DNA of 64,000 nucleotides from Choanephora cucurbitarum. Taxonomy: Eukaryota > Mucoromycota > Mucoromycetes > Mucorales > Choanephoraceae. Position numbers and translations under genes: made by a program. Below the pieces are notes generated by a model. The model was not told where the DNA came from, did not search any database, and worked only from the letters and a program-made list of their open reading frames with translations. Shown here piece after piece: positions 29,524-60,500 of this stretch. The stretch is from contig JAIWNI010000032.1 of assembly GCA_025331435.1 (NCBI GenBank), positions 1 to 64,000 of the forward strand, given 5' to 3'. Every line of letters begins with the position of its first letter. Within the stretch, counting starts at the first letter, position 1.

Positions 29524-30289
29524 TATATCAAATGTTGATCAAAAAAAATAAAGATCTCATTTTTTTTTGGCAAACGCGTTTTCGAGAACGCGTCTAAATC
29601 ATATTTGAACTCCATTCTGTGAGTAAATTGCTTTGGTTTTCAGGAACAATTTCTTACTGGCATGCAACTGCTGTCCTCAGGTAATTGCTTTGATGGACTA
29701 GTAGTTTGCAAAGGTCGATATCAAAACACCATTAAAGAGTAACAGAGCATACTCAGATATGACTTTGTTGTAAGATTACTAATATCCAAAAAGTTTTCCC
29801 AATATATGATACTATAGAGGACTGAAGGAAAATGTTTTGGAAGAACCCTTGGAGCAGCCTTTTATACCTTCTGTTTGTATTTACATCTTGCTGCTATAGA
29901 TTTTCAAAACGCCTATTGCGTTTCTATAGACTTTACCAACATCCCTGATACACAGGCAATCATCTTTCCTTCTTCCCCAAAAAAGGCGCTTGGAAAACTT
30001 CAAACAGGCCTTACAAAATGGGTCTCGAGCCAACAGAAAAAGCCATCTAGTAGAACTAAGTCTAGGTGCAATGAAGCGACAAATATGCTGCTATAAAATG
30101 AAGTCAAAGAAATACAGTTTGAGAATACAGCTGGAAATTGCAATAGTGAATCAACTTTAAGCCAAATGAGATGGTCTGGATTGGGATCAGTACGAATGAT
30201 TTTTAAAAGAATTTTTTTTTAATAATATTGATTTCTATCAGAATACTCATAATGAAGATAAACATATAGGAAATAAAATATTTCTATCC
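29524..30289. other. Intergenic region with no recognised gene
   Basis: About 770 bp, starting with the Csm3 promoter. An open frame around 29875-30096 (+) contains no recognisable domain and has no splice-supported extension. It marks the left end of the mobile-element-rich island. Confidence 0.4.
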
Positions 30290-30650
30290 CTACTTCGTTG
30301 TATACAACATTTCTTGTGTGGTTCTTTGCATGTTGTGCTGAAATGGAATTGGATTAGCCAAATAAAACCTTGATAAGGTTTTATGTCTAACTCTTGAAAG
30401 AGCAATATAGAGCTGTTCGAGACTGAAGACTAGCTTTGGTAAATGGAAATACAACCCGATCAAGAGTTTGACCTTGGGCATTGTTGATCATCATCGCAAA
30501 ACAAGTCGTAAAGGAATATGATACATTGAAATTGTATAGCATCGTCTTGAGCTGAAAGAGGTTTTATATTAGGAATGCGTACAATGGATCCAGCAAGTGC
30601 ACTTGTTTCAATCGTAGCTTCAATCGCATTTGTACTGTTTGGCAGCTAAA
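30290..30650 (-). pseudogene. Pif1/Helitron-type helicase C-terminal fragment
   Basis: On the minus strand the segment translates, with frameshifts, into helicase-tail signatures: a GSIVRIPNI run, then a region resembling FAMTINKSQGQTLD (seen here as FAMMINNAQGQTLD), then SLEQLYIALSRVRH. These are the final motifs of Pif1-like helicases as found in Helitrons. Upstream motifs, including Walker A, are missing. It is an isolated 3' fragment in the opposite orientation to the larger Helitron relic near 38-43 kb, so it comes from a separate insertion or a rearranged piece. Confidence 0.7.
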
Positions 30651-31496
30651 AAAAATAATAAAAAAACACAAGTAGATTTAAAGGGGTTTATTCAAATGCA
30701 AAAGCAAAGTGAATCTAATCTATTCCTACTTCCAAATGATCTCTCTATTTATACTTTTCGAAAGCTAGGATGATTTAGCATATCTAACTTGCTGTTGATC
30801 GCATATTATCATGAACCCTTCGATGTCGATATCCACAGTCTATGATAGTTCAAAGTACGCATCTAAGGTGTGACGAGAATACTAACTTGGACAGCCTTTC
30901 GATGTTAGACTCGAATTTGGAAGCATAAAGAATAATTATTGCTCTATTGAAATTGAAGGATTTGTGATTTGTCAGTGTACAAAGTTAAGCAATGAGAATT
31001 AAACTAGTCAAAGAATTACTGTTTATTGAGTGTAAAAGTACATGGTATTTATAGAAGAAGTATCTGTGTCAGATCATAGACATTAGGTGAAGGGTTTAAG
31101 TTGATAGCTGGGATATGCTTTGATAGAAGAGATTAGACTCAGTTTATCTTCTGGGTCTAGCATGATAGAACCCTGTTATCTAGGATCTGGTTAATCCATC
31201 ATTTTGGTTCATATCCTAAACCCTGAACATTTCCACGTTGTATTACATCAGTTATGATGATCTAGCTTTATCGCATTGTTGAGTCATTATGAATTATGCT
31301 ATGTTGTATACTTGACACAACAGTTTGATTGGCTGATTTAAGAATATAGGTACTTCTTGTTATGTAGTTCACTACATTGTAGTCATTATAAATCTGGGTG
31401 AAAAGGAGCCCTTCCTCCCATAAATATATACAGAGTAAGTCCAGTTAATAAGTGTATAATTAGGCTATAAGCAGTCAAACACATTCAATAGCTATA
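30651..31496. other. AT-rich spacer, no gene recognised
   Basis: No open frame with recognisable domains on either strand. The sequence is locally rich in short repeats of GATA/TAG type. An LTR identity was considered but no terminal repeats or target-site duplication could be found. Confidence 0.35.
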
Positions 31497-31660
31497 ACCG
31501 TACTGATGAAACTTATACCAACAATGAGTGTACTGACAATGAGTGTACTGATACCGATTATACTATCACTGAGTATACTAACAATGAATTTACTGGCAAT
31601 GAGTGTGTTGTTGACGAGTGTACTGATAAAGAGCGTACTGATAATGAGGATAGTGTGAAT
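31497..31660. repeat. Degenerate 15-bp tandem array A
   Basis: Around ten imperfect copies of a 15-bp unit close to GTACTGATAATGAGT. On the plus strand it reads as a pentapeptide pattern NE(C/Y/F)TD; on the minus strand an uninterrupted pattern STLIV-like. Divergence among copies is high, so the array is old or evolving freely. Confidence 0.7.
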
Positions 31661-31717
31661 GAGTGACGATGAAGTGATCACACAGTAAGGAAATATGATG
31701 AAGTTGAGAATACGGAA

Positions 31718-31855
31718 ATCGAGACCAATGATATTGAAGCCAATGAAATCGAGCACAATAAAATCAAGCACAATAAAATCAAGCACAATGAAATCGAGCA
31801 CAATAAAATTGAATACAATGAAACTGAGCTTAAAGAAATTAAGCATAATGAATTT
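31718..31855. repeat. Degenerate 15-bp tandem array B
   Basis: About eight or nine copies of a 15-bp unit close to GAAATCGAGCACAAT. It reads EIEHN/KIKHN on the plus strand and FIVLD on the minus strand. It sits 60 bp from array A and both are spanned by one minus-strand open frame of about 120 codons (31475-31846), which looks like a by-product of the repeat rather than a gene, although that is not proven. Confidence 0.7.
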
Positions 31856-32148
31856 GGGAATGTGATATTTGCAGGCTCAGATAAATTCAATGAGAGGGAA
31901 CTCGAAACTTTTATTAAAAAGAAAGAGAGGGAACTAATTCTACTGCACGTTCATGTTGTGTTAATATACTATTTCTATCTCGGTTTCAATCAATCACTCC
32001 GTTACAGTTTTATCTATATGAGCAGTTTTCCTACTGGGATGACTGGTCACCTTTATAAAAAGAATAAAGCTATTTACCGCCACCGAAAATTCTTATTTAC
32101 AACCACTGACCCGATCCCTGAGTTTAAAATAATCTGGTTTACAGCCAC

Positions 32149-32270
32149 TTTATTTACAACCACCTTATTTACAACCACCACCTTATTTACAACCACCACC
32201 TTATTTACAACCACCACCTTATTTACAACCACCACCTTATTTACAACCACCCTTATTCACAACCACCCTT
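32149..32270 (+). repeat. 18-bp tandem repeat, left subterminal region of the MULE
   Basis: Seven copies of a unit close to ACCTTATTTACAACCACC, mostly at exact 18-bp spacing, end 42 bp before the transposase ATG. The last copy carries TTCAC for TTTAC, and that variant is the one matched by the right-hand inverted copy. Such clusters often serve as transposase-binding sites in MULEs and may include the promoter (inference). Confidence 0.85.
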
Positions 32271-32312
32271 AGACATACCATCAAACCATAGTTTCTAGCC
32301 TTTCTTGAAATA

Positions 32313-35312
32313 ATGATAAGTGAAAATTTACAAAAAGTTCCTGAAGTCCTTCCCGAACTTCCTCGAAGCATCGATAAAGAATCTCTTAATACTCTTATTA
32401 AAGAGTATGCAACTAGAAACAATTTTGCAGTTTCTATTACAAGATCCGACGCAAAAAGACTAGTTTATCAATGCGTGAAAAGTGGCAAACATAGAGAAGA
32501 CTACAAGCGCATTGAAGACGTTAATAAGCAACGAGCTAAAATGAGTGTAAAGACAAACTGTCCTTTTACCATTAGATTCTCTAAAGTTAAAAGCAAAGGC
32601 ACTCTTAGTCTTATTGAGCCTCACGATGAACGTGAACTGTGCCATAACCATTCTCTTGACATACTTGAAATGTTGTCTGTACCAAAAGGACGTAAGAATA
32701 ACCTTGAGCCAAGCGAGATGAAGAAAGTCAGTTTCGGTCTTGAGTTAGACTTGGCACCTCGCAAAATTCAAGAATCCATTAGTAGAGATGGCAGCTATAA
32801 CAAGCTAACTGCAATTGACATCAAAAACATGAAGCAAGACTATAAGAGACAAAGTCACCAATCCTCGTTTAAAGCGTCTAGTAATGAAGCAACAGATTTG
32901 ATCAATCGAATGCAAAGTGACGGGTTTACTGTATTCTACGACTTTAATGAAGCAGGTTTCCTGAAGTCGATTCTCTTCGCCAATAGTAAAATGATTGAAA
33001 GAACAAAGCAATTCCCTGAAGTAATGGTAATCGATGCCACATACAAAACAAACAATCTTGGAATGCCTTTGATTGGTGTGTATGGTGTAAGCAACATTGG
33101 AAGAAATGCTTTAAAAAGCTTTCCTGTAGCGTTTGCCTGGGTCTCAAACGAGCAAGAGTCCACTTACAACTGGGTTCTTTTAAAGCTGAATCAATTACTA
33201 GGAGGCATTTCGTCAGAAACTGTGTTTATTACTGATAAGTGCACAGCTTTAAGAAATTCATTAAGCAGACACTTTTCTGAAAACAAAAAGCTTCTTTGTA
33301 CATGGCATATGTTAAACAATCTTGATGACCATTGTAATAAGAAGACATTCAAGAACAGCAAGACCATAGATGATTTCAAGTCGTACGTCAAAGCTTTGAT
33401 TGATTTGCCAAGCTTCACCGAATTTTCAAAGTACAGTAATCTAATCAATGAAATTCTTTACGACGACAATTGTTTCGTCTCAAAAGATGAGAGAATCAAG
33501 TTCAAGGAATATTATGAAACCGAGTGGAAGCTTTGCCTACATCAGTGGGCAGCCAACTACACATCAAAAGTAAGGAACATGGGCTGTACTACTTCTCAAA
33601 GAGCAGAAAGTGGCCATGGAGCAATGAAGAATGGCATGAACTCAGCACAACAGCTTTGCATCGCCTTTGAAAAAATCAGCGATTACTTGAGACGCTTTGA
33701 TCGCAATTTCAATGAGCAAGAGCTGAAAGAAAAGACTAGCTGCGACATTCTCATAAGTGGTGATGATCAATTGAACCATCTCCGTGGAAAAGTTGGTCAT
33801 TTCGCTCTTTATAAGCTTCGAGAAGAACTTTACAAAGAACGGCCAGTAATCCCTGCACAATACTCGGAATGTGTTTGTAAAAATCGAGTTGTGTATGGGC
33901 TGCTATGCTGTCATCAAATGGACAGATTAAAGCAAAGCAGAATCGAGTTGATTGATGTACCTCAACGTTGGTGGATATCTAAAGCTGATGAATATGCTCA
34001 TAAACCATTGAAGAGCTTCACAAAGCCATGGGTTAAATATTTGCTTGCACTTGATGAAGCATTCCGTGTAGCAGAAGGAGATGTAGTTGAAACGTCTCGT
34101 TTAACATATGTACTTGACGATCTTCTGCATACAGATAACAATTCCTTTGTTGATGGTAGCTCTAGAACCAAGTTGGAATCTGGAGGCATCCCTCCTTTGC
34201 AATTACCAGAAGCAAGTGAAGTAAGAAAACCGGGAAGACCACCAAAATCTCAAAGACTATCTTCGCTTCCCAAAGACTTTGCCAATGCTAGTTTTAGAAA
34301 GCAGTACAGTAAAATTGATCTGAAGAAAAAGCAAGAAGACGGAGAAGAAAAGAAAGAAGAAGACGAAGAAGAAAAGAAAGAAGAAAAGAAAGAAGAAAAG
34401 AAAGAAGAAAAGAAAGAAGAAAAGAAAGAAGAAAAAAAAGAAGAAAAGAAAGAAGAAGATGAAGAAGAAGAAGAAGAAAAAAAGAAAGAAGATAGAAAGG
34501 AAAAGTCCAAAAAGAGAAAGCCTGTTTGTCATGGAGATTTCGTATATGATTTGTACATTCCTAAAAAGAGGGCAACCACTGAAAGAAAAAGGTACCAACA
34601 CAGTAGGTTAGATTTTCTTGTTCATGAGAGCATAGATAAACTTGATGTTGTAGAAACCCATGATCCCAAAGGCGATGGATTTTGTGGGTTTAGATCTGCA
34701 GCTCATGCTATTTATGGCGACGAGGATAAGTTCATTCAGGTTAAAGAAGCAATGCTGAATGTCTTGGGAAAGAAGTTCAATGATGATATGACATACGCGG
34801 ACTTCTATAGTAGTTCGTTGGGAATGATAATGAAAGATGTAAAAATGACTATCATTTGTGGCATTGATCAGCAAAACAATAGCTCGGAATTAAGAGGTGA
34901 ACCATCCCATACAAAAGCAAAAGTTGCTCAACCAAGATTCTGGTTTGATAGTTTGGATTGTATGCAAATTTTGGCTGATGCTTACGGAAGACCAGTTTGC
35001 TACTATCCCCCTGTTGTTGATGTACCGGAAGTAGCGATTGATCAACCTGCTTCGTATTTCCCGGTGATCTTGCCAGCAAAGCTTGATAAGAAACCGCTTC
35101 CAATCCACATCCAAAACATCAACGGTTGCCACTGGGGTTTCTATCAAGTTCTCCAATCATGCCAAAGATTTCCGGCTCCTTCTAGAGTGTATATCGATGC
35201 GCATGAATCGCTTCGTGGCAATTTTGATAACTATTGGAATCGTTGGAAGCAATTCCACAAGCAACCGAAATCCTTAGAAGAAAAAGAAACAGCTGTTATT
35301 GTTATCGATTAA
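32313..35312 (+). CDS. FAR1/MULE transposase with AT-hook and C-terminal OTU-like cysteine protease
   Basis: A single uninterrupted 999-codon frame. In order: a FAR1-type N-terminal zinc-binding region (about residues 30-115); a MULE DDE core with VIDATYKTNN (first Asp, about 244), FITDKCTALR (second Asp, about 308) and SQRAESGHGAMK (Glu, about 432); a SWIM zinc finger CVC...CCH (about 518-533); an AT-hook KPGRPPK (about 640); about 60 residues of Lys/Glu repeats; and an OTU-like domain (about 780-950) with catalytic-type GDGFCGFR and, near its end, GCHWGFYQV. The DDE triad, SWIM ligands and the OTU Cys and His are all present, so the protein could be active. OTU enzymes cleave ubiquitin or related conjugates; the substrate here is unknown. 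There are no introns or frame breaks, unlike every other element in the window. Confidence 0.88.
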   Translation: MISENLQKVPEVLPELPRSIDKESLNTLIKEYATRNNFAVSITRSDAKRLVYQCVKSGKHREDYKRIEDVNKQRAKMSVKTNCPFTIRFSKVKSKGTLSLIEPHDERELCHNHSLDILEMLSVPKGRKNNLEPSEMKKVSFGLELDLAPRKIQESISRDGSYNKLTAIDIKNMKQDYKRQSHQSSFKASSNEATDLINRMQSDGFTVFYDFNEAGFLKSILFANSKMIERTKQFPEVMVIDATYKTNNLGMPLIGVYGVSNIGRNALKSFPVAFAWVSNEQESTYNWVLLKLNQLLGGISSETVFITDKCTALRNSLSRHFSENKKLLCTWHMLNNLDDHCNKKTFKNSKTIDDFKSYVKALIDLPSFTEFSKYSNLINEILYDDNCFVSKDERIKFKEYYETEWKLCLHQWAANYTSKVRNMGCTTSQRAESGHGAMKNGMNSAQQLCIAFEKISDYLRRFDRNFNEQELKEKTSCDILISGDDQLNHLRGKVGHFALYKLREELYKERPVIPAQYSECVCKNRVVYGLLCCHQMDRLKQSRIELIDVPQRWWISKADEYAHKPLKSFTKPWVKYLLALDEAFRVAEGDVVETSRLTYVLDDLLHTDNNSFVDGSSRTKLESGGIPPLQLPEASEVRKPGRPPKSQRLSSLPKDFANASFRKQYSKIDLKKKQEDGEEKKEEDEEEKKEEKKEEKKEEKKEEKKEEKKEEKKEEDEEEEEEKKKEDRKEKSKKRKPVCHGDFVYDLYIPKKRATTERKRYQHSRLDFLVHESIDKLDVVETHDPKGDGFCGFRSAAHAIYGDEDKFIQVKEAMLNVLGKKFNDDMTYADFYSSSLGMIMKDVKMTIICGIDQQNNSSELRGEPSHTKAKVAQPRFWFDSLDCMQILADAYGRPVCYYPPVVDVPEVAIDQPASYFPVILPAKLDKKPLPIHIQNINGCHWGFYQVLQSCQRFPAPSRVYIDAHESLRGNFDNYWNRWKQFHKQPKSLEEKETAVIVID
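34321..34505 (+). repeat. GAAGAAAAGAAA purine repeat encoding Lys/Glu-rich linker
   Basis: A nearly all-purine tract built of 12-bp units encoding KKEE repeats between the AT-hook and the OTU-like domain of the MULE protein. It probably forms a long charged helix that spaces the two domains. Purine tracts of this kind can also form unusual DNA structures. Confidence 0.85.
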
Positions 35313-35420
35313 ATGGAGTTATATATACACATTTATTGACATAGTGAATTTACATATGATTACCACGAAAATGGTTGTGAATAAGGTAGGTTCTGCTCAA
35401 TCAGGTGGTTGTAAAAAACA

Positions 35421-36420: not shown

Positions 36421-36579
36421 GACCAATAACTATAAAAGAGACAACAATCTGTTCGTAACTTTTTGTTTTTCTTCACTTACTCATTTACTTGCTCACTTCT
36501 TCTTATACTTCTACTTCTTTTTCACCTTTACCTTACTTTTACTTTACTCAGCTCTTTCTACATCTTATACTCTCCAAAT
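36421..36579 (+). promoter_or_regulatory. Promoter and leader of secreted-peptide gene 1
   Basis: A CCAAT box (36423-36427) directly precedes a strong TATA box TATAAAAGAG (36431-36440), 140 bp before the ATG. The leader is pyrimidine-rich with CTTTTAC-like units. From the TATA box on, this segment aligns almost base for base with 44224-44365. Confidence 0.7.
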
Positions 36580-36822
36580 ATGCGTTTCATCACTGTGTCT
36601 ATTGTCTTGGCTGCTGCTTTCGTTGCCTGTAGTTCTGCTGCTAGTATCCACCAACGAGGTCTTTTAGATGGTCTTTTAGGCGACGATGGTCTGTTGGGTG
36701 GCGATGGTCTGTTGGGTGGCGATGGTTTTTTGGGTGGCGATGGTTTTTGGATGACCTTCTGGACAACTAAAATGACAGAAATTGTCAAGTTAGGAGAATT
36801 GAAACCGGGTCGAAGAAGATGA
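36580..36822 (+). CDS. Small secreted glycine/aspartate-repeat protein (copy 1)
   Basis: An 80-residue frame. Residues 1-20 form a clear signal peptide (MRFITVSIVLAAAFVACSSA) with predicted cleavage near Ala-Ala-Ser. The mature part starts SIHQR and has about five LLGGDG-type hexapeptide repeats, then an unrelated, basic tail (WMTFWTTKM...GRRR). In the last repeat a T run has five bases where the preceding repeat has six. With six, the frame would continue FLDDLLDN and stop, so the present tail may be a frameshift product. A second gene at 44366 shares promoter, leader, signal peptide and SIHQR. The function is unknown. No domain was recognised. Confidence 0.65.
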   Translation: MRFITVSIVLAAAFVACSSAASIHQRGLLDGLLGDDGLLGGDGLLGGDGFLGGDGFWMTFWTTKMTEIVKLGELKPGRRR

Positions 36823-38396
36823 AGCTATTTATTGACTTGTTTTGTGCTGAAATTATCCATTTACTATCTACCTACTTATTTATAATTATCTCTATACCAA
36901 GACCAGAATCTAATCATTCCTAAACAAGAACTCTCAGTAGAAAAAAATCGTTAATAGTATCATTTTCTCTTTATTAATAAACCTGTAGTTTTTATCTTAA
37001 AGTATAGCGGAGCACTTTTTCTATTCCCCTGTTCAGAGTTCATATCGCAGAAAGTTGTTTGGATCTGCTATCTTTTCTATGATACTCTGAATGCCCTGTC
37101 TTCTGTTTTGATAATGTGCAAAAGAGATGAACTAGATGGCCCTGCTACACTATGGACTCATCAAATTGATAAGACCAGTTCTGTATTGCTATTGAGAGTT
37201 TGATAGCTTAGGAGCAAGAGAGTAGGCGAGATCGGTCCCCTTCTTTTTCTCTCTTTCCTTGTTTTTCTTTATAATGTTCATTCTAACTGAATATGTTTTA
37301 CAGCGTCAAAGTGCTCTGTTGAAAGTTCGTTTATCGGCTTGTCTACTTGTTGGTTTATGTTTTGAACATGAATAAATCAGATATCTTCAAACAGTGAATA
37401 AAGTTTTCCTTGATTCAATTAACAAAAAACGCAGAATGAAGAAGAAGCTACACTAACTTTATAAATAAACTACGCACGAAGCAATTCAAAAAGCGTTGAT
37501 GAAATGCAAACTTCTTTGAATCGGATTGCTAGCTTATAGAGGTTTCTTTGATCGACAAAACTAACATCAAAAGGTGTTTTCACTGAAATTTGAGATATGT
37601 TATTCTTAATCATGCAATGCTCATTTTTAAACCATATAAACTCGAAGAAGCTAGTACAAAAGCAAAGAGGTATTCCTCTGTAATTATTTCTTTTCCCTCC
37701 TGTTTTTTTTTCTACTTCTTTACAAATTTCTAAGCTTATAAATAGCATCACTTATCATTTGAAGTCTGATTTTGCTCTCGCCGTGGCAGCCAGAAGACAT
37801 TTTCAATGCCAAAGTACAATACTTGTTTTAATTTCAGAGTAAGTTTGAACAATTAATGTATATATGTTGTCAGTTTTGACTAGCATTTTGAACGAAGCCA
37901 TTGATATTAAAAAAAATAAATGGATGTTGTCAGCGTTACAGAGTCAAACTATATTTGACTTCTGTCTGTAGAAGAAAAAGACGAAGAAGTCTAAACTTCC
38001 TGTTCTAAAAGGAAATGAGTCAGATTTGGGCTTGTTAAGAGACCATCTGTGTATCTGTTGCACCTCTCAAAAGCTACTAGAGCTAAAGAAACTAACTGCC
38101 GTCTGATTGTTAGGCAATATTGTTCCTCTCCTCAGTTTAGTTTAGTTTGCTCATAACTTTAAACTGATGAAACGAACGGAAAAGATGGCTCTCGTGTAAT
38201 TCTACTGCTCATTATTTGGCGTTTGAACGTTGCTTATAATACCTACTCAAGCTGTGGATCTATTTTTCTTTATTTCAGGTTTGCACTATGTGACTCATGC
38301 CAAGTAAGTTTCTCTGTACCAATGCAACACTGTAAAATGATCTAGCTTGTAGTCTACTTTCTTTAGAGAGAGCACAGGAAATAGAGCTGCAAAAAG
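36823..38396. other. Gene-free spacer before the Helitron relic
   Basis: About 1.6 kb without recognisable coding sequence. The first 150 bp presumably contain the 3' UTR of the secreted-peptide gene. The 5' end of the Helitron may lie here, but no terminal TC motif could be defined. Confidence 0.35.
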
Positions 38397-40480
38397 ATGC
38401 CAAACGCTCAGACTTCCAGTCGCAGAAGAAGGTCTGTTCAACTTCCAGTGGCCTTTGATTCCCAAACTAACCGTCTTTTACCTTTTGATTTTGACCCAAT
38501 AGAAAATCCATATGCTAGTTGTGATGCTAAGCATCAGCAAGCTGAGTCGCCTTTACGGTATGCTTCTCTTAAAAAGTTTTGGATGAGTTGCTGTAAACAA
38601 ACAAGGTTAAATGTGAAGAATCTCCGGCTCATCTGAAGATTTTATTCGAAGAAGCTGGTAACCTTAGAGACAAATTAGGAAAATTCAATGCGGTCTCTGC
38701 TTTTGCTTCTGTGTTTTTTGTAATGCGAAACACGAATGACAGCACAAGCAATATGCCGTTCACACTGATGACCAAACACACCATGTTCTAGACTCTCTCT
38801 TGACAGAAAGTGACGGAAATGTCAAGTGCTCTCAGCTTCGTATTCTTATTCTTAGTACGCAGCAACAAGTAACCACAACATAATTAGCAGTATCATTAAT
38901 GAAACTACCTTTGATGATTCATAAAAATCCTCATGTTAGATTGTATGAGACTACACATGAGCTTTTCATGAATGCTGAGATTAGTGAAAGTGAAACTCCT
39001 TCTATTCGAATTTGTCCTTCAATGAAATGGAGCTAGTAGCTAAATCTGATAGACATACTGAGACTTTTTATAATTCCAATACAGTTGTGAAAATTATTCC
39101 AGATTAGCATAATGCTGAAGAATTTAGAGATACTCGTGTTTAATCTCATATAAACATCATTCAGAATCATGCTTTATGTGTGCATTTGAATTATATGCTA
39201 TTGTTCTCTAGTGGTAATTTGGGCTGGCACTGGGGCTTAAGATTGGATGATGAATCAACTCGCTTAACACAAAAAGTATACTATTGCTATAGACTCCATC
39301 AAAGAACATACGAGTATCCTTTTCTTTTCTTTTCTTAGGTAGAAGATTGTTTCAGCAATACTGGGTGAATGTTTGGGCTATTTGCGATCAAAATAAAGCT
39401 GGATAGATTAGAAGTCATCAATACAATATAAGAGCTGATCTTTGCAATGGTCTTCAAGATGCTCTAAACAATGATGATGTTGCTCCCGCCTCTTTGGGAA
39501 AACGTTTTATCCTGACTAGTGGTCCCCAATTTATGGTTAGGCTCTATCAAGACTCAATGGCAATTGTTAGATTTTTCGGCAAGCCTTCATTATTTGTTAC
39601 TTTTACTGCTAATCCCAGATGGATAGAAATCCAAAGAAAGCTACTGCCTGGACAAATGCCTCCGATCGACCTGATTTAGTCGCAAGAGTCTTTGACTTGA
39701 AAGTAAAAACCCTGCTAAAAGATCTTGAAGTCAAGCAAATATTCGGATCGTACAATGGTTTAGTTCGAACTATTGGGTATCAAAAATTAGGATTTCCTCA
39801 CCTGCATCTGCTTTTGTATTTGGATCACTCGCAAAACATAGACACTGCAGAAAAGATCAATCAAATCATCTCAGCTGAATTGCCATGCAAAGAATCCGAC
39901 CCTGAGCTTTTTGACATTATCGCAAAAAACATGGTACATGGACCTTGCGGCGATCTGAATCCAAAGTCTCCATGTATGGCTAAGGATAGCAACAGTCAAC
40001 TGAAATGTACCAAGCGATTTCCTAAATCCTTTTCGGAAGAAACTATTGTTAATGAAAACGGCTATCCAACATACAAGCGATCAGCAACTGCCCAGTCTTT
40101 ATATACTATACCTAATCCTTTGAGATATAATGGTGACCGTTTAAGTATTGACAATAGCTGGATTGTGCCCTACAATCCCTACCTTTCAAAGAAATACAAG
40201 GCTCACATAAATGTTGAATGTTGTCAAGGCGTTGCAGCCATTAAATACATCAACAAATATGTATACAAGGGTTCTGATCGTACCACCTTGAAACTAAATG
40301 ATACGAGAGATGAGATTGACAAACATCTTCAAGGAAGATACATTGGCCCTACAGAAGCATTCAGTCGTATCTTTGAATACAAAGTCCACGAAGAAGATCT
40401 CACTGTTACAATTTCGGCCCTTCATTTACCTAATGAACAACCTGTGTACTCTCCTGAGGATGCATCTTCACCTTAAATAC
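38397..40480 (+). pseudogene. Helitron Rep (HUH/Y2) portion, degraded
   Basis: Fragments in several frames follow Helitron Rep order. Near 38397-38640 is a Cys-containing N-terminal region (SCCKQTRLNVKNL). Degraded linker sequence follows, and from about 39479 the Rep domain: LGKRFILTSGPQFMVRLYQDSMAI, RFFGKPSLFVTFTANPRWIEI, a one-base frameshift near 39660, DRPDLVARVFDLKVKTLLKDL, the HUH motif PHLHLLL (about 39799-39819), and the double-tyrosine motif KYINKYVYKG (about 40243-40270). In rolling-circle transposition the His pair binds metal and the tyrosines nick DNA. Numerous stops upstream show the copy is dead, although the Rep core itself is open for 285 codons. Confidence 0.88.
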
Positions 40481-40489
40481 AAGAAATCT

Positions 40490-42720
40490 TAGCTAACAGC
40501 AGCTCAATGTTGATTACTTATTTCAAGTATTATGAAAATAATCCAAATAGGCAAAAACATCTGTATCAGGACTTTCCTGAATACTATGTTTGGAAGCAAG
40601 GTACGAAAAGTTGGGTACCACGCAAGAAGGGCTTTGCAATTTGTAGAATACCTTTCTGTAGTCCTACATGTGACGAAAGGTATTTTTGAGACTTCTTTTG
40701 GTGAATGCTGCAGGATCCAAATCTTTCGATGATCTCAAAACAGTCAACGGATTTCAGTTTGCAACTCTCAAGCAAGCTTGTCTCCAGTTGCATTTGATTG
40801 AGGATGATCAAGAATGGACAAAATACTTTGAGGAAGCTCATCTCTTCTCTTCCGATCATAGTCTTCGTGATTTATTTGTCACATCATTAATTTTCGGACA
40901 GCCAATCGATCCAATGTCTCTATGGCTGCAATTCCGTGAATTAATTTGTGATGACCTATCTCACGAGCTAAAGCAAATATTTCCGGATAGTCTTCAATTG
41001 TACATGTCATCATATCCACAAGCCTCCTACAATGAGCGGTCTTCAATGGATTATGGACTGTATTTGTTTGATGAAAAATTGAAGGACTTTAGTAAATCAC
41101 TTGAATGATTTAATCTGCCTATACCTAAACACAATTGGGCAAGCGATTCAAACCGCCTTCATTCTGATTGCACTTTCACTGATAACCCTCTGATTGACGA
41201 AAAATTATGGTGCAACTCTCTGGACGAAGAACTAGCATATCACTCAAAATATGCGCTCTTCAATCCAGACCAGACGCAAGCTTTTGATACTATAGTTCCC
41301 AAGTTGCAGTCTTTCAATTCGTTAAGTGACACTAACTCAGTCAATTCTGAGACTAGTATCTGCTTCTTTTTGCATGGCTCAGCCGTTACCGAAAAGACTT
41401 TTGTTTACAATGCACTGTATAGCCATCCAAAAGGTAACAAAAAGTTTTTGTGTGTCGCTTCATCTGGTATCGTAACGCTACTTTTAGTTGGAGGCAGGAT
41501 ATCTCATTTTAAGCTTAATGTCTCTTCAGTACTTAATGAATCTTCAACCTGCAATATTCTAAAAGGATAGCAAACTGGCTGACTTACTTTGCCAACCATC
41601 TTTGATTGTTTAGGATAAATTTTCTAAGCAAAACAGACCATGCTTTGAGGCTGTTGATCGCACTCTTAGAAACTTTTGGAGTAACAGTTTGCTTTTTGGT
41701 GGTGATTTCGCTCAAATTCCTCCAGTAGTCAATAAAGGTACTAGATCTTCTATTGTAGGAGCCTCAATTAAGCAATCTTACATTTGGCGTCAAACACAGG
41801 TATTACATTTTCATATAATCATGTGTGTAATAGGTGCTTCATCCAATGATGCTCATTTTAAAAAATGACTTTATTCAATGACTTATAACACTCCAATGCA
41901 ATGCAAAATGCGAAAATACCTCCGCCGCAATATATATCTCAAACTTCTTCTTTGGATGAGCTCATTGCTAAGGTCTATTCTCAAGAGAATCTCTTACAAG
42001 CACTTGACAATCGAAGTATCTTATACAAATCTGCTATTCTTACTTCCAAAAATACCGTTGTAGAGTCTATAAACGAAAAGGTGGCTAATTTGATACCAGG
42101 AAAGTCTATTACTTTGAGCTTTGCTGATAAGGCTGACTATTCGTATGAGGAAAACAGTAACAACGAAGTCTATAGGGTTTCCACTGAATACCTGCAAACA
42201 TTAAGCCCAAGCAGCTTTCCACCTGCTAAGTTAACTTTAAGAGTAGACTGTATTGTAATTTCACTCACAAATTTAGATCCTCAAAGAGGTCTATGCAATG
42301 CTACTAGACTGAGTGTAAAAAGAATTGGTCAGTATGTCCTTGAAACTGTAGTAATGAAAGATTAAAATGACGGTCATGAACAAACTGAGTTTATTCTAGA
42401 ATAACTCTTACTACCTCGGAAGACGACTATCCATTTATTTTGTCAAGAAAGCAAATTCCTATCAAGCTTAGCTTTGCTATGATAATTAACGAGTCTCAAG
42501 GTCAATACTTAACAAATGTAGGCATCGATCTTCAATCTTCTCCGTTCACACATGGCGAATTAAATGTTGCTTTCTCTTGATCGTTTAAACTTCAGAGAAT
42601 TGATGTCTTGCTGACAGAAACATATTCTAATTAAAGAGGCTCACCTTCTGGCAACTCTATAGATAGTATCATGTATCTTAACTTCTTCTATAAAAAACGT
42701 CATTGCTCTTTATATCCTAC
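40490..42720 (+). pseudogene. Helitron Pif1-like helicase portion, degraded
   Basis: This continues the Helitron polyprotein in shifting frames: FPEYYVWKQGTKSWVPRKKG (40570s), a -1 shift to LLLVNAAGSKSFDDLKTVNG, then a Walker A remnant reading GSAVTEKT instead of GPGGTGKT (about 41376), GGDFAQIPPVV (about 41700), and a long open piece with AILTSKN...VANLIPGKS and NLDPQRGLCNATRL (41901-42365). It ends with LSFAMIINESQGQ and, after an in-frame stop, NSIDSIMYLNFFYK (about 42700). The broken P-loop alone would abolish ATP binding. It lies in the same orientation as the Rep part, so both belong to one former element. Confidence 0.88.
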
Positions 42721-44220
42721 TTTATCATTGGCAATCTTTTATTCCATTCGTCGATTTTTGGGTGGGACAGTTAGAGTTCAAACTGTATGACGACGTTTGT
42801 TATAGAACGAGCGCAACAAGTAGGGTGGCCAGTAATACTGCATATTATGTATGCATACAAGCATTAGCGCATGTAAGCTTTAACGTATACATCAACTTCA
42901 TAAAACGAGAATATAGACATCAAAAAGAAGAAGCATTGCATATAAGAACTTTTCTTCTTTTTTTGGCAATGTTAAATTACTATATTCAAATGCATGCGAA
43001 ACCAAAATGGTATATTAAATCTCATGCTGTTGATTCACAGGATTGGATCATATCATGAACAAGAAGTAAGTATCTTTACAAAAAGAAAAAGCCGAATTGG
43101 CTATAAGAATACACGCTCTGAGTCCTACGTGTAAAACGATAGGCGCATTCAAGCTGAGCGGTTTCTTTGCTTATCCTTGCAACATAGTGTATGGGAAAAA
43201 AAAGAGCAAGTACAGCTATGAATACTATCAAAATACCAACTTTGTATCAACAGACAGGCTGACTGTAAGGGCCAAGCAAAAATGAAGTGTACGATGACGC
43301 GTTTCGATATACGCTCAAAACATCTGAGAGCACCATGAACCTGCGTATAGAGATACTATAACCTTGCTTTTTTCATGTTATTTGAACGTGTTTGGACTAA
43401 TTTGATACTACATATTGCTTTGTACTGTTGCGATAAATAGACTCTAGAAGATATTAATAATAATAATAAAAAAGACATCTTACAAGTTGCGAAAGTAAGG
43501 GTGAAGGTGCATATCTGAAAAAAAAAAGAGCAAAGAAAAAACTTTAAGCAAATTGAAAGGGGCTGCAAGAGAGCCAACCAGATCAAGAGTGTTGAGCACA
43601 AGTACGTAAAATGAATGCTTAAAGAGATTTGTATGCAAGTGGCGATCCTTTCGAGTTTGCTTGTTTGGTTTGCTTCGTTCTCTGAAACACAAGACAACGC
43701 ATAACACAGTAGACTGATAAAGAGCACAAGAAAGAAAAAGGCAGACAACACTTTTATTCAGGGATTTGGATTTGGATTTGAATTTCGATTTGATCAAGGG
43801 AAGAAAAGCCTCTTGATGTCCTTATGCACTCAGGCTAAGCAACACGCCTACATAAAGACACCAGCAAAAAAAAAGAAAGACAGAAAAAAGGAAATAGTTT
43901 ATTCATCGAGTTGATCTCCTGCGAGAATGTGTTTGTTTGTTTGTTTGCTTGTTTGTTGTATGTTTTGCTGTCTCCGTGTAACCCTTCAAACGTCTCTCTC
44001 TCTCTCTCTCTTTTTTTTTTCTTTTCTTTTCTTTTCTTCGTTCTCTTTCCCTGTCTTTCATTATCGAACGCCCTGTATAATACGCTCTATGTTCTTTATT
44101 TGCTTTTTGAGGCTTGCATTGCATTGCGATCACCATCGCAAAATAGCCTCTGCAATGTACAATGACAGGAAGAAAAAATAGCAACACCAACAAGAGATCA
44201 GCAACAATTGCAAATCAAAA
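42721..44220. other. Spacer after the Helitron, no gene recognised
   Basis: Short frames such as 42762-43058 (+), 43097-43285 (+) and 43356-43751 (-) show no known domains. The Helitron 3' end should lie early in this interval, but no clear hairpin plus CTRR end could be assigned by eye. A GTTT/CT microsatellite-like stretch (43926-44040) is present. Confidence 0.4.
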
Positions 44221-44223
44221 TCA

Positions 44224-44365
44224 TATAAAAGAGACAACAATCTGTTCGTAGCTTTTTGTTTTCTTCACTCACTCACTTCTTTTTTACCTTTACCTTTGCC
44301 TTTACTTTTACTTTTACTTTTACTTTACTCAGCTCAACTCTTTCTACATCTTATACTCTCCAAAT
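44224..44365 (+). promoter_or_regulatory. Promoter and leader of secreted-peptide gene 2
   Basis: It carries the same TATAAAAGAG box (44224-44233), the same following ACAACAATCTGTTCGTA stretch and the same leader as copy 1. The 5' leader has a longer run of CTTTTA hexamers (about 44300-44332). The sequence ends TCTCCAAATATG at the start codon in both copies. The CCAAT box of copy 1 is not conserved here. Confidence 0.7.
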
Positions 44366-44608
44366 ATGCGTTTCATCACTGTGTCTATTGTCTTGGCTGC
44401 TGCTTTCATTGCCTGTAGTTCTGCTGCTAGTATCCACCAAAGAGATGGCTTAGATCTTGATATTTTGGATGAAATTCTTAACGGCGATGGTCTTCTTGAC
44501 ACTCTTAATAAGCGCTCTGCCAAGAATGGAGAAGCCGACGAAGACGAACAAGAGCAAGATGAAGAGGAACAAGACGAACAAGGTGATGCTAGCCTTAACA
44601 ACCACTAA
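44366..44608 (+). CDS. Small secreted acidic protein (copy 2)
   Basis: An 80-residue frame, exactly the same length as copy 1. The signal peptide MRFITVSIVLAAAFIACSSA differs from copy 1 by one residue (Ile for Val), and SIHQR follows in both. The mature part is different: DGLDLDILDEILNGDGLLDTL, a dibasic KR that could be cut by a Kex2-type protease, and then an acidic Asp/Glu/Gln-rich tail. Only the short NGDGLLD segment recalls the GGDGLL repeats of copy 1. The function is unknown. The strong leader, signal peptide and fast-changing mature part would suit an exported structural or effector-like peptide (inference). Confidence 0.68.
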   Translation: MRFITVSIVLAAAFIACSSAASIHQRDGLDLDILDEILNGDGLLDTLNKRSAKNGEADEDEQEQDEEEQDEQGDASLNNH

Positions 44609-47600
44609 ACGCATCTTTCTTACTCGCACGCTTTCCCTCGCTGTATCTCTGTCTCTCCTTATTCCCTCAATCATATCAACCTCAGTTCGCAGATTCAGCC
44701 TTGACTAGGTTGGCTGTTCTGTTGATCTCTCTTATAAGCTAAATGTATTATTAATAAAGCGTGCTATTTACCGACACTTTGTTTTGTTGTATGAATCGGA
44801 TAGAGCATCACGATACAGTCGTTCATGATACTATCATATCGCGATAAGTGCTGGTAGATGCTCCCAAAAGATGCGACCTGATCTACCAACGAATCACATT
44901 ATCCTTCAACATGACAATGTCTTCATTGATGAATTGCATGTGTTCTTTTCTTTCTTTTTTTTTTTTACGTTCTCTGAAATCTTTTCCGAGCATACTCTGA
45001 TCTCGTGTAGCTTTTTGTTACAATGAAGCGACCAAACATGATTGCTTATCTATTGATCAAGATGATTATTTTCCTTCTTTTTTATCTTTTTTGGACAATA
45101 ATTAATTATTTTATAGTGAGCTGCTTATTAAGCTTTGGGAAGTGAACGATATTAGCGCTCCCATTTTTTATTTTTAGAAACCAAAACAAAGCTACAAAAA
45201 CTAGAATAGCGCATCCGTCTATACGAAATGGGAATTTGCTTCCCTAAATTTCTATCAATGCATTGAACTTTCTTAAGACATTCCTGTCTTCCTTCTCTTT
45301 TTCTTCGTCATTTCTCAAGTTCACCTTCAAACCTTCCATACTTTAATAAATATTAAGTAACTATGCATTCTACATCAGCAACCATGTAGCTTCTTTTGTG
45401 AATAAACTATAAACGGATCATGGCACAGTTTCCATGCAAATTCTATGAAATAGGTTTAAAGTGCTAATGATTGAGTAAGAGTTCCAATCATGCATGACAT
45501 TTGGATTTTGGTTCTCAAAGAAGAAGATAAGTGTGATGTTTTGGTAGTGATTTAAGAGAAAAGATTATAGAGACAGAAAGAGAGTACAGTGAGACTGTTT
45601 TAAACTGTTTATTACTTCAAAAAGAGGTTTTAGAACTAATGTCTTCTAACAACAACTATTTATATGTTTTCAATAAAGGATCTGATGTAATCACAGATTA
45701 TGGAGTTTGTACTAAATTAGTGTATTACTGTTACTTGTAACTTTAATAGTTACCATCATTCCTTATCCCGAGGATTTATGTTACCGAATGATGTGATGCT
45801 ATCTCTTGAGTCTAGTTCTTTGTGTTGAACCTTATTGACTTCAGTTGGATTCTTTTATTTCGTAAGGATTTAGATCTTTTACTTTATTTCTGATGTTATA
45901 TCTTTTATGACTTATTTGGTCTTTCATGCAACCTTATTGTCATTGTTGAGACTAAATGTGCTCAGATCACCACAATAAGAGAGCATAATATCAGATATCT
46001 ATTAAAATCTGATACTTTATTTGAAGCAGTTATACAAAGAAGACTGCAACGTTTTCGTATTAATATAGGTTGCAAGTTTGTTATTTAACTAATATCTATC
46101 TTTTTCTCTTGCATTTTTGAATAGATAAGTGAGACGAAACCAACAGTATGTCCTGTTTTTTGAAGAAAGCACTGCATTTGACCAAATACATATCTTTCTT
46201 AGTCGAGATTCTTTGTGGCAACAGTCAGATCTTACCTAATAGTAGGTCCAATTTTGTTTCATGAAGAGCCAATTCCTCTCCAAGTAACTCAAGGCTTTGT
46301 TGTACTTTGGCATGCCCGTTTCAAAGTGGAAGTTAAAAACCGCTATCTAAATGCTTTAATAAAGGACACCAAAAAAAGATTATGGGGGGCCACAAGACCA
46401 CTGGAAGAAGAGCAAGTTACCGTTACTAATGTCTTGTTCTGTTATCACGAATTTGACTACCTATCTTCCAAATAGAACAATAAGCTGAGGCCTTCGATCA
46501 GATGTAGCAGGACAGAGCGTGAGAGATTCGACCAAACCTTCTTTAAATAGAAAAAGAAGAAAGCAGATCGATCATATATTTAAGTCATACAACAAATAGA
46601 GATTGTCCAAACAAGGATGATACATTCATACTGGTTAAAAGATCTATTGTAAAAATCGAATGTAAATTTTAAAACGAAGTGCCAAAAGAGGACGCCTTAC
46701 ATTACAAATTCCAAGTTCACATAGACCATTCATCACAGACTGACTAGCATGTCGAAAATTAAAAGCTTATATTGGAATCCATAGTATATGGATGTATTTC
46801 TTGGTTCTTTAGAATGCTTGGAGATTTCGAATGACCTCAAGAGAAGTCATTCTTGAGTAAACGAGTATAATGCCTTAGCAAAATGAGTCGCACCGTTGTG
46901 AAGACATCTGAATAAAGTTTCAGCATAATCCTGTTTGTATCTATGTATCTTAAACTCAAGGCTACTCGATAGACTTCATTCATGACCAGATGATAAAATC
47001 TGCCTGCCGTCAATCTTATCCAAATAGGCTACGGAACCACTGAAAAGTCAGAGGCTTAAATTGATTGACGAACCGACAGATCTTAGCATAACAGAAAGCG
47101 CACAGAAACAATAGAAGGAATCGATAGGTATTGATATGCAAAAATTCAACTCAACCTGTTGCTCTGACTCTTCAACAAGCCTCAACTAAAATGAAATTGA
47201 GACATTATGAGAAATCAAATATAGAGTAATCTTTCTATCTTGTTCTATTTGAGACAAAGTAGGCATTTAGAACGAACGAAGCAAGCTAGTCATTGAAAGA
47301 GATAAGGGAACACGCAATTAATTGATGGCTTAGAGGAAGCGAAAAGAATTTGCAAATGCTTTTGCTATCTGCATTGTGCATTGACAAGCAGCAGTTTGTT
47401 TAATCTTACAAAGGGCTACTCCACAAAAATTGGCGAACTGATTAGATGGCTTCATTAGTAGACGAGAAGATCTTTTCCGCTCCAATTGATACTATTTCTG
47501 AATATTAAATGCTATTTGGCATTACCAAGACATATATTGGCTGTGAGAATAATAGTGTCTTGCACTCCCTCTCCAATCTCAATCTTTTCCGTTGTTGAAT

Positions 47601-57500: not shown

Positions 57501-60500
57501 ATAGAGAGCAACTGGAATGATTTGGATTTTGCCTCAGCTTCTGTAACATTATCTCTTGGTATGTCCATAGAGCGGTTGTTGTCGTCCGTTGGTATGTCAG
57601 TTGGTAAGTTCTTAGTATCATTGTTGCTGTCACCGTGTATTATTTCTGCTTGCGAAATCGATTCCAAAGCTAATATAGATCCTTGAATATTTGTCTTTCT
57701 TTCTTTCCGTCAAAACTTACTTTGCAAAGGTTCGATGTGTGATATTGGTATATATTGAACTGTTTTTGAGTCGTTATTTGAATCAGCATCAGTTTCGAAG
57801 AGTCTCACAGTTTCATTTTGATGCAGTGCTTGAAAGTGGTGTGCTGTATGATCATCTGCTATCTGTGCATCTCCAAAGCTGCTGTCAATAACGACTGGCG
57901 TGCTTGCTGATTTTGAATAAGATGAAGCAGTTGAAGTTGAAGATGAAGTAGATCGAATGATATCTCCAGATTGATTGAATTCATCATCATCATCGTCATC
58001 ATCATCGTCAGTCTCTTCGGATATTGCTAAAGCATTAGATTCTTCAAATCTTCTTGTTGGCATAGGTTCTGCAGCCATACGTTGATTAAAGAGGGCTCGT
58101 TTCTGATTAAGTGCCTCAGGACCCAGTTTTAGGGATTTCAACTTCTTGGGTTTAGCAGGTTTATGTTTAACAGAAGCTTCAATAGCTCTCTCATGCATTT
58201 CAATCTTTGTTGTTGTATTCTCTGCTCTTTTCTCCAGTAGCTTCAAATCCTTTTTGAATTGTGTTTGATCTAAAACATCTAGTTTCTTCTTGACTCCTCC
58301 TGGTCTATCGGACATGGAAGGATTATGAGTAACATCTTGCTCCAAAACAACACTTTCTTCGCTTCTGCTCTTGATAGATGCAGTATCTATGTCCCCTATG
58401 GAAGAGGTCTCAGTTTGTATCGAAGCTAATGACTTTGTGTCGGTTTCAGTAGCTGAGTTTTGGTCAGTCGTTTGAATGTCTACTTTTGAAGATATAGCTT
58501 TGTGATTGACAGTTGAATGGTTGTTTTCCAGAGGCTGCTTCTCCAAAGATTGCTTCTCTAAAGATTGTTTCTCCAAGGGTTGCTCTTCCAGAGGCTGCTT
58601 TTCTAGAGGGTACTTTTCTATAGACTGCTTCTCCAAAGGCTGCTTTTCTATAGACTGCTTCTCCAAAGGCTGCTTTTCTAGAGGCTGCTTCTCAAAAGGC
58701 TGCTTCTCAAAAGGCTGCTTCCCAAAAGGCTGCTTCTCAAAAGACTGCTTCTCAAAAGGTTGCTTTTCCAAAGGTTGCTTTTCTAGAGATTGTTTTTCTA
58801 GAGGTTGTTTTTCTAAAGGTTGCTCTTCCAGAGGCTGCTTTTCTGATGATGAAGCATCTATACAAATAACAAGTCAGGCAAGGAGAAAAAAGAGAAAAAG
58901 ATACACCTGGTTTCGTTTTTTCTACCTGTATCTTTTCTTCTAGAAATGATGCTATCATCTCCCAAATCTTCAACAGTCCTAGCATCCTTCTTCCAAACTT
59001 CGAATTTTCTACCAATTGTATGTATTTCAATCTCTTCTTTAACGTTGTGTTGTTCATGCATGTCAACAATATCCTTGATTTTAACCGGACCAATATCAAC
59101 TAGTTTTTTCTCCTGTGCCGACTTAGCAGGAACATTGGCCTCACGCATCTTTCCAATATTCAGCAAATCCAGCTCTTCGTCATTTACTGCAGAGCCTAAA
59201 TCCGATAGATTTTTATTGTCAAATGAAGCATTTGTTGGGCTTTTCAAGGAGAGAGAGGTGCTCGTAGTATTTTTCGGCGCAAAAGACGATTCTGAAGGAC
59301 TGAAGAGTGAAGTCGAGTTACTTTTTAGGGAAGCTGTAGGACTACTTAAAGAGAGTGATGTGCTTGATTTATTATTTTCGTTATTCACTTTGAGTGAGAG
59401 TGCACTCTTTTTTGACTTGGTCGATGCATTGTCTGACACATCTTCGTCTATGATAGAATCTTTGTCCGTCTGTGATTTTTGTGATGATGCAGTGTTACTG
59501 TTTTCTTCTTTTGAATCTACAAGTGATTCCTTTGAGGCTAGCCGTAATTTGGCTAAGGGAGGTGCATTCGTATTCTTGTCTTCTGAAGGTTGTGCCTGAC
59601 GAAAGACACTACTGGATACATAGGAGCTGTTTTTTAGTGAATTAATTACTCTTGATGAACGCTTGATTTGCTCATCGCCCTTCAGGAGTTTTTGCCTGTC
59701 TCGAATGGTTGATACAGAAGGTACAGCTGGTTTCTGCTCTACTTTTTGATTTTGTCCTTCAAGCTTTTTAAACAACGGGTTGTTTTTAACAGCTGAGCGT
59801 TGTGCTAGCAATTCGATATCTTTTTGTCGTTTTAGTTTCTGCTTTTCTAGTTCCTCTTCTTCTTCGTTTAAGATACGTCTCTTTTTCTCTTCTAAGTGAC
59901 CTGGACGAAAGTAACGACGAGTAGAATTCTGGCGTCCATTAGTTGTTTTGTTGCTCTTGTTGTTAGGTGATTCGGCAAGCTCTCTTAATCTTCTGAAACG
60001 ATCTGATGTGCTGACTGGAACTTTCTCTTTCGACGTCGGCTTCGACTTGTTGATTAACAGTTTTGGCTGATCATCATTGTTCTTCTCTAGTTGCTCTTCT
60101 TTCATTGGCAAATGCCCCAGTTTATTTGGCGTATTGGCCAAAGCACCTTTCTCTATCAGCTGCTGAGTAAGATTGGGCTGATTGAGCAGATAGGCCAGAT
60201 GCATTGTGGTATTTTCCTCAGCACCCCAAAGACAACTATTAAGTTCATTTCCTGTTGTATTCTATAAGTCGGGTTAAGACAACAAGAAAAAAAAGTTAAT
60301 TAAAATGTTGTAAGATTTTTAATTTGTCCTGAAAAAGAGTTTGTACCTTTAATATGAAGTCGACCAATACTGAACGGTCACTGGCCCACTCATCGCCAGG
60401 TACACCATAGTCGAATAAGATATGGTGAAGTGGATAGACAGGTCTTAGGCTAGTACCTAGAACCTTAAAGGAGTCTAAACGTTGTATGAAATGTGCAAAA

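What the first reader, a model, noticed from the sequence alone, without database searches (positions are those of the whole stretch)
36421..44608. Two secreted-peptide genes share promoter, leader and signal peptide but not the mature protein
From the TATA box to six codons past the predicted signal cleavage (36431-36658 versus 44224-44441) the two loci are nearly identical, then the coding sequences diverge almost completely (Gly/Asp hexapeptide repeats versus Asp/Glu-rich with a KR site), while both frames remain 243 nt. This is a delivery-cassette pattern: constant expression and export module, variable cargo. It resembles what is seen in effector or toxin-like peptide families and could be a lineage-specific family spread in the mobile island.
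Basis: partly seen in the sequence, partly recalled or inferred. Interest (0 to 1): 0.78.

Follow-up and report, generated by a model that had tools for sequence, protein, structure and literature searches.

The report
Secreted-peptide family with shared leader
In a plant-pathogenic mould, two neighbouring small genes share the same start (core promoter, untranslated leader and export signal) but encode different products; they belong to a small family of such genes, a pattern known from other organisms, and what the products do is unknown.

Summary
The observation largely holds. Window 36431-36669 and 44224-44455 are 84% identical (E 3e-70), 139 of 142 sites outside a T/C-rich run; similarity fades after codon 26. 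Two corrections: upstream of the TATA box nothing is shared beyond chance, and the equal 243-nt length hangs on one homopolymer base: in a second assembled version of the locus (contig C337) gene 1 encodes 63 aa, not 80.

The genome is Choanephora cucurbitarum. Patterns for both ends of the signal peptide find the same seven places, four distinct genes. The unlinked pair on C324 and C59 repeats the arrangement: signal regions 25 of 27 identical, the rest not alignable beyond chance. In presumed orthologues of another isolate the signal region is better kept than the rest. All named homologues found are from this species.

Best reading: an orphan family of secreted precursors with a conserved leader and divergent products, in which gene 1 is a young chimera carrying the 5' block of a gene-2-like copy. 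Effector function is untested. New member of a known kind.

The parts
36431..36669 (+). Shared 5' block of gene 1: TATA box, leader, signal peptide and next residues
   Evidence: 84% identical to 44224-44455, E 3e-70; 139 of 142 sites identical outside the T/C-rich run
44224..44455 (+). Shared 5' block of gene 2
36580..36822 (+). Gene 1 open frame as assembled in the window, 80 aa with hexapeptide repeats; the C337 version of the same locus reads 63 aa
   Evidence: one-base homopolymer difference between the two assembled versions
36667..36750 (+). 18-bp tandem repeat, 4.7 copies, forming the product part of gene 1
44366..44608 (+). Gene 2 open frame, 80 aa: signal peptide, acidic segment, KR at 49-50, Asp/Glu-rich tail; identical protein at C337:98746 and C337:113435
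36976..36981 (+). AATAAA downstream of gene 1 (possible polyadenylation signal)
44753..44758 (+). AATAAA downstream of gene 2 (possible polyadenylation signal)
42869..45092 (+). 2.2-kb unit holding gene 2, present once more at C337:97230-99472
   Evidence: 98.5% identical; inside the unit 2 substitutions, near its left end, plus length changes
32069..35418 (+). Mutator-like (MULE) transposon upstream of gene 1, ORF 32313-35312; ends approximate
   Evidence: Pfam MULE E 1e-20; its 5' part matches several other contigs; degenerate inverted arms 32219-32265 / 35372-35418
38226..42712 (+). Helitron-like element between the two genes; multi-copy; ends approximate
   Evidence: Helitron_like_N and Pif1_2B domains; genome matches

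Best explanation
The two genes are members of a small orphan family of secreted precursors in Choanephora cucurbitarum. Each has a similar 26-27-residue start (signal peptide ending Ala-Ala, then Ser-Ile-x-x-Arg) followed by a divergent product. Gene 2 is the older form, because another isolate has a similar start of the product. Gene 1 is a recent chimera: about 230 bp, from the TATA box to codon 26 of a gene-2-like copy, came to stand, by partial duplication or gene conversion inside a cluster of local duplications, in front of a short tandem repeat that now supplies the product. The products should enter the ER and leave the cell; gene 2 would then be cut by Kex2 at its KR site. Shown: sequence sharing, its edges, family size, conservation pattern. 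Inferred: direction of transfer, secretion, cleavage, expression and any role in infection.
For: Abrupt edges: the block is 98% identical outside the T/C-rich run, with only chance or borderline similarity upstream, in the product part and downstream. Point mutation alone would hardly leave 2 changes in 78 nt of signal peptide and erase the adjoining part. Gene 2's product start matches the 16 product residues of the other isolate's partial protein A0J61_07229 (0 of 2000 shuffles reach the score); gene 1's does not (350 of 2000). Local duplications are present: the 2.2-kb unit with gene 2 and a 298-bp stretch downstream of gene 1 (89%). Family-wide: the same seven places, four distinct genes, with two signal-peptide patterns. 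C324 against C59: 6 synonymous and 2 nonsynonymous codon changes in 27; product parts not alignable beyond chance (238 of 2000). Signal region against rest across isolates: 25/27 v 90/134, 25/27 v 69/124, 27/27 v 10/15.
Against: Between the two pairs the leader is less constant: gene 2 v C324 4 synonymous and 9 nonsynonymous codons of 27, gene 2 v C59 6 and 11, gene 1 v C324 4 and 9 of 26, and the protein matches between the pairs are weak (E 0.003 to 0.07; 0.04 to 0.2). The product parts of genes 1 and 2 share an 11-nt word and weak similarity (DNA 2 of 200, protein 78 of 2000 shuffles), so whole-gene duplication with repeat expansion is not excluded. Gene 1's repeat is open in all three frames, so its frame is weak evidence of coding. 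Gene 1 was found in no other isolate, but only predicted proteins of other isolates could be searched. No expression data and no signal-peptide predictor were available.
Confidence: 0.55

Rival explanations
1. Whole-gene duplication of gene 2, after which tandem expansion of one 18-bp unit, already present once in gene 2, replaced the product part of gene 1.
For: Gene 2 holds one unit-like stretch (an 11-nt word is shared; the DNA score is reached by only 2 of 200 shuffles); gene 1 is built from that unit.
Against: The 3' DNA is at most borderline alike (8 of 200 shuffles) and the upstream DNA is not alike, which expansion inside the coding part does not explain.
Confidence: 0.25
2. Gene 1 is a non-functional 5' fragment: the duplicated promoter and signal block reads by chance into a simple repeat.
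For: All three frames are open across the repeat; the end of the frame differs between the two assembled versions; no orthologue found.
Against: The repeat is in frame with the signal peptide without a stop, and an AATAAA follows; both are weak.
Confidence: 0.25
3. One reading: a host-directed effector or toxin-like family in which a constant delivery cassette carries rapidly diversifying cargo under positive selection.
For: The fungus is a plant pathogen (PMC5238444, start of abstract in the listing, passages); members start with a signal-peptide-like leader; the rest diverges faster than the leader between isolates; no Pfam family at its cut-off.
Against: No expression or phenotype data; no cysteines in the products; acidic low-complexity products also fit cell-wall, surface or signalling peptides; too few orthologues for a selection test.
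Confidence: 0.2

Closest known systems
KEX2-processed repeat proteins (KEPs) of fungi (Le Marquer et al. 2019, PMC6339444; passages seen)
   Same: Secreted precursors; the C59 relative has a leader, five KRAPI units and KR sites between repeats; KEPs are reported in Mucoromycota.
   Different: Gene 1 has repeats but no KR/RR in its 63-aa version (the 80-aa window frame ends in RRR); gene 2 has one KR and no repeats. In the passages seen KEPs are not defined by a shared signal peptide.
Conserved-leader, variable-product secreted peptide families such as conotoxins and legume NCR peptides (recalled, not tested)
   Same: Signal peptide conserved above the product across paralogues.
   Different: Those families are, as recalled, large and cysteine-rich; here four genes and no cysteine in the products. 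No sequence relation is claimed.
Orphan secreted proteins of Choanephora cucurbitarum (PMC5238444; passages seen)
   Same: The paper counts 97 secreted orphan genes, 84 without a known domain, as effector candidates; this family fits the description.
   Different: The passages seen do not name this family; whether it is among the 97 was not checked.

Membership tests
KEX2-processed repeat proteins (KEPs) | Signal peptide | not testable with these tools
   No signal-peptide predictor here; the start (basic residue, hydrophobic run, SSAA) fits by eye in all four genes
KEX2-processed repeat proteins (KEPs) | At least three internal repeats (minimum of the published pipeline) | tested here: inconclusive
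   Gene 1: 4.7 copies of an 18-bp unit; C59: five KRAPI units; gene 2: no tandem repeat within its frame in the scan; C324 not scanned
KEX2-processed repeat proteins (KEPs) | Kex2 sites between the repeats | tested here: not met
   For the two window genes: gene 1 has none in its C337 version, gene 2 has one KR and no repeats; of the four genes only C59 meets it
Conserved-leader / variable-cargo secreted peptide family (as a pattern) | Leader more conserved than product within each pair of paralogues and between isolates | tested here: met
   between the two pairs the leader itself differs at 9-11 amino acids
Conserved-leader / variable-cargo secreted peptide family (as a pattern) | Diversifying selection on the product | not tested
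   Too few alignable orthologous sequences
Plant-pathogen effector | Induced in planta, secreted, affects the host | not testable with these tools
   No expression, proteomic or phenotype data available here

The most novel reading that the evidence does not exclude
Gene 1 is a very young gene born by capture: a ready-made block (TATA box, leader, signal peptide) copied from a paralogue landed in front of non-genic tandem-repeat DNA and turned it at once into an expressed, exported peptide, and the family's other, unlinked pair arose in the same way earlier.
Probability: 0.25. Interest if true: 0.6.

Novelty: new member of a known kind. Interest (0 to 1): 0.36.

Why it matters
If the genes are expressed, this is a compact, datable case of how new secreted peptides arise in early-diverging fungi: the 5' block is shared at about 2% divergence while the product is new. 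It also marks a small family, not named in anything I saw, of secreted candidates in a crop pathogen, and shows that gene lengths read from this assembly must be checked against the second version of the locus.

Tried and rejected
Rejected: that the two versions of the locus (C246 and C337) are two gene sets. Right of the MULE (after 35418) the alignment has 65 differences: 4 substitutions and 61 indels, of which 53 are one base long and 49 of those lie next to the same base; two longer ones lie in the tandem repeat near 58.7 kb and the last is the end of C337. Inside the MULE (32069-35418) there are 32 substitutions and 8 indels. No near-identical second copy was found for C246 17000-26500, for C337 78000-86999 or for about the first 2.6 kb right of 58845 (in which only 40 of 99 candidates were scored). 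I read the two versions as one locus assembled twice, joined to different left flanks at the MULE. A recent segmental duplication is not excluded; which join is right was not settled, and no clear target-site duplication was seen by eye.

Rejected: a shared upstream promoter. Not supported: an amphipathic helix in either product; moments at 100 degrees were reached by 2320 of 5000 (gene 2) and 1838 of 5000 (gene 1) shuffles; at 120 and 160 degrees gene 2's were reached by 234 and 336 of 5000. Pfam gave no family at its cut-off for the four family genes; Extensin_1 on C59 and PI3K_1B_p101 on gene 2 lie below the cut-off. The weak C257 match (E 0.06, residues 21-74) was not taken as a member, because it lacks the leader. 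Paper searches on conserved signal peptides with divergent mature parts, on partial-duplication chimeras and on Mucorales Kex2 repeat proteins showed no title on this family (listings only). A search for papers on this assembly found none. No structure prediction was run; I judged short low-complexity peptides unsuitable.

Full report
What was checked. The two blocks are real. Window 36431-36669 and 44224-44455 align at 84% with gaps, E 3e-70. The gaps lie in a T/C-rich leader run; outside it 34 of 35 (36431-36465) and 105 of 107 (36552-36658) sites agree. Strong similarity begins at the TATA box and ends after codon 26. The 400 bp upstream, the product-coding DNA and about 280 bp downstream gave local scores that 12, 2 and 8 of 200 dinucleotide shuffles reached; the shared block scored 305 against a best of 33 in 50 shuffles. 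'Shared promoter' therefore means core promoter and leader, not the upstream control region.

The genome and its assembly. The window is the start of contig C246 of a 33.4-Mb genome in 357 contigs. The C324 family member is identical over its length to EDC96DRAFT_547082 of Choanephora cucurbitarum, on a contig of the same length, 147929; the C59 member's contig length, 49402, also equals that of EDC96DRAFT_530892. This is a mucoralean mould that causes blossom rot of cucurbits (PMC5238444, start of abstract in the listing). Window 32069-58830 occurs again at the end of C337 (99.3%). Right of the MULE the 65 differences are 4 substitutions and 61 indels, 53 of them one base long; no near-identical second copy was found for three stretches beyond the overlap. 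I take this as one locus assembled twice. It matters because gene 1 reads 80 aa in one version and 63 aa in the other, owing to one base in a homopolymer; I cannot say from the assembly which is right.

The family. A DNA search with 36421-36670 finds five blocks plus the start of a gene on C324; protein searches add C59 (E 0.003 and 0.07), and the C324 protein finds C59 at E 2e-9. Patterns for the first ten codons (no mismatch) and for the end of the signal region (up to one mismatch) each return the same seven places; the reversed-pattern controls give 0 and 1. Seven places are four distinct genes: gene 1 (C246 and C337), gene 2 (C246 and two on C337), C324 and C59. The extra gene 2 on C337 lies in a 2.2-kb unit with 2 substitutions near its left end plus length changes.

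Constant leader, different product. C324 and C59 have signal regions identical at 25 of 27 residues, with 6 synonymous and 2 nonsynonymous codon changes, while their product parts do not align beyond chance (238 of 2000 shuffles). Against presumed orthologues of another isolate (A0J61 proteins) the signal region is kept at 25/27 (C324), 25/27 (C59, deposited form) and 27/27 (gene 2), the rest at 90/134, 69/124 and 10/15 (the last is a 42-aa partial protein). Against strict constancy: between the two pairs 9 to 11 of 26-27 codons differ in amino acid and 4 to 6 silently. Searches of a very large protein set gave 1 hit of 1 candidate (itself), 2 of 1544 and 4 of 2624; every named hit is Choanephora cucurbitarum. 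That search needs shared 5-residue words and similar length, so unannotated or far diverged relatives would be missed.

Origin. The start of gene 2's product is shared with the other isolate (0 of 2000 shuffles), gene 1's is not (350 of 2000); only 16 product residues of that isolate's protein are known. Gene 1's product is an 18-bp tandem repeat that is open in all three frames. The simplest history is that gene 1 received the 5' block of a gene-2-like copy. Local duplications around it make such an event plausible. Whole-gene duplication with repeat expansion remains possible because gene 2 carries one unit-like stretch.

Function. The leader should export the product. Gene 2 has one Kex2-type KR; gene 1 has none in the 63-aa version, while the 80-aa frame ends in RRR; C59 has eight KR, some between repeats, and two RR, and fits the KEP definition apart from a signal-peptide test; C324 has RR at 25-26 and KR at 138-139. 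None of the four products has a cysteine (gene 1 in its 63-aa version) or a Pfam family at its cut-off. A MULE (32069-35418) and a Helitron-like element (38226-42712), both with matches on other contigs, flank the genes. Secretion, processing, expression and any effect on a host are inferred or untested.

Verdict. A genuine, small, apparently species-restricted secreted-peptide family with a conserved leader, in which one member looks like a recent chimera. The pattern is known in other organisms (recalled); no title on this family appeared in my paper searches (listings, plus passages of two papers).

Noticed in passing
window 32069-58830 and C337:101224-127881: 26.8 kb assembled twice; right of the MULE mostly single-base length differences, left flanks unrelated. 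Probable redundant contig end or misjoin at the MULE.
   Followed up: partly
window 37047-37344 and C337:96443-96740: 298-bp stretch downstream of gene 1, ungapped 89% match upstream of the extra gene 2 copy, with a nearly unchanged core of over 100 bp (by eye) that holds a 29-aa frame; nature unknown.
   Followed up: partly
C59:22810 (-), L021:919-1629 (-): Relative with KR-separated repeats (KEP-like); the genome frame is 237 aa, the deposited protein 207 aa, lacking 30 aa of repeat, perhaps annotated as an intron.
   Followed up: partly
window 32313-35312: Open 999-aa MULE transposase ORF whose C-terminal third looks OTU-protease-like by eye; Pfam did not report OTU at E 0.1.
   Followed up: no
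window 30151-31856: Dense repeats immediately left of the MULE, matching many contigs (query 1252-2957).
   Followed up: no
window 58516-58844: Tandem repeat at which contig C337 ends.
   Followed up: no
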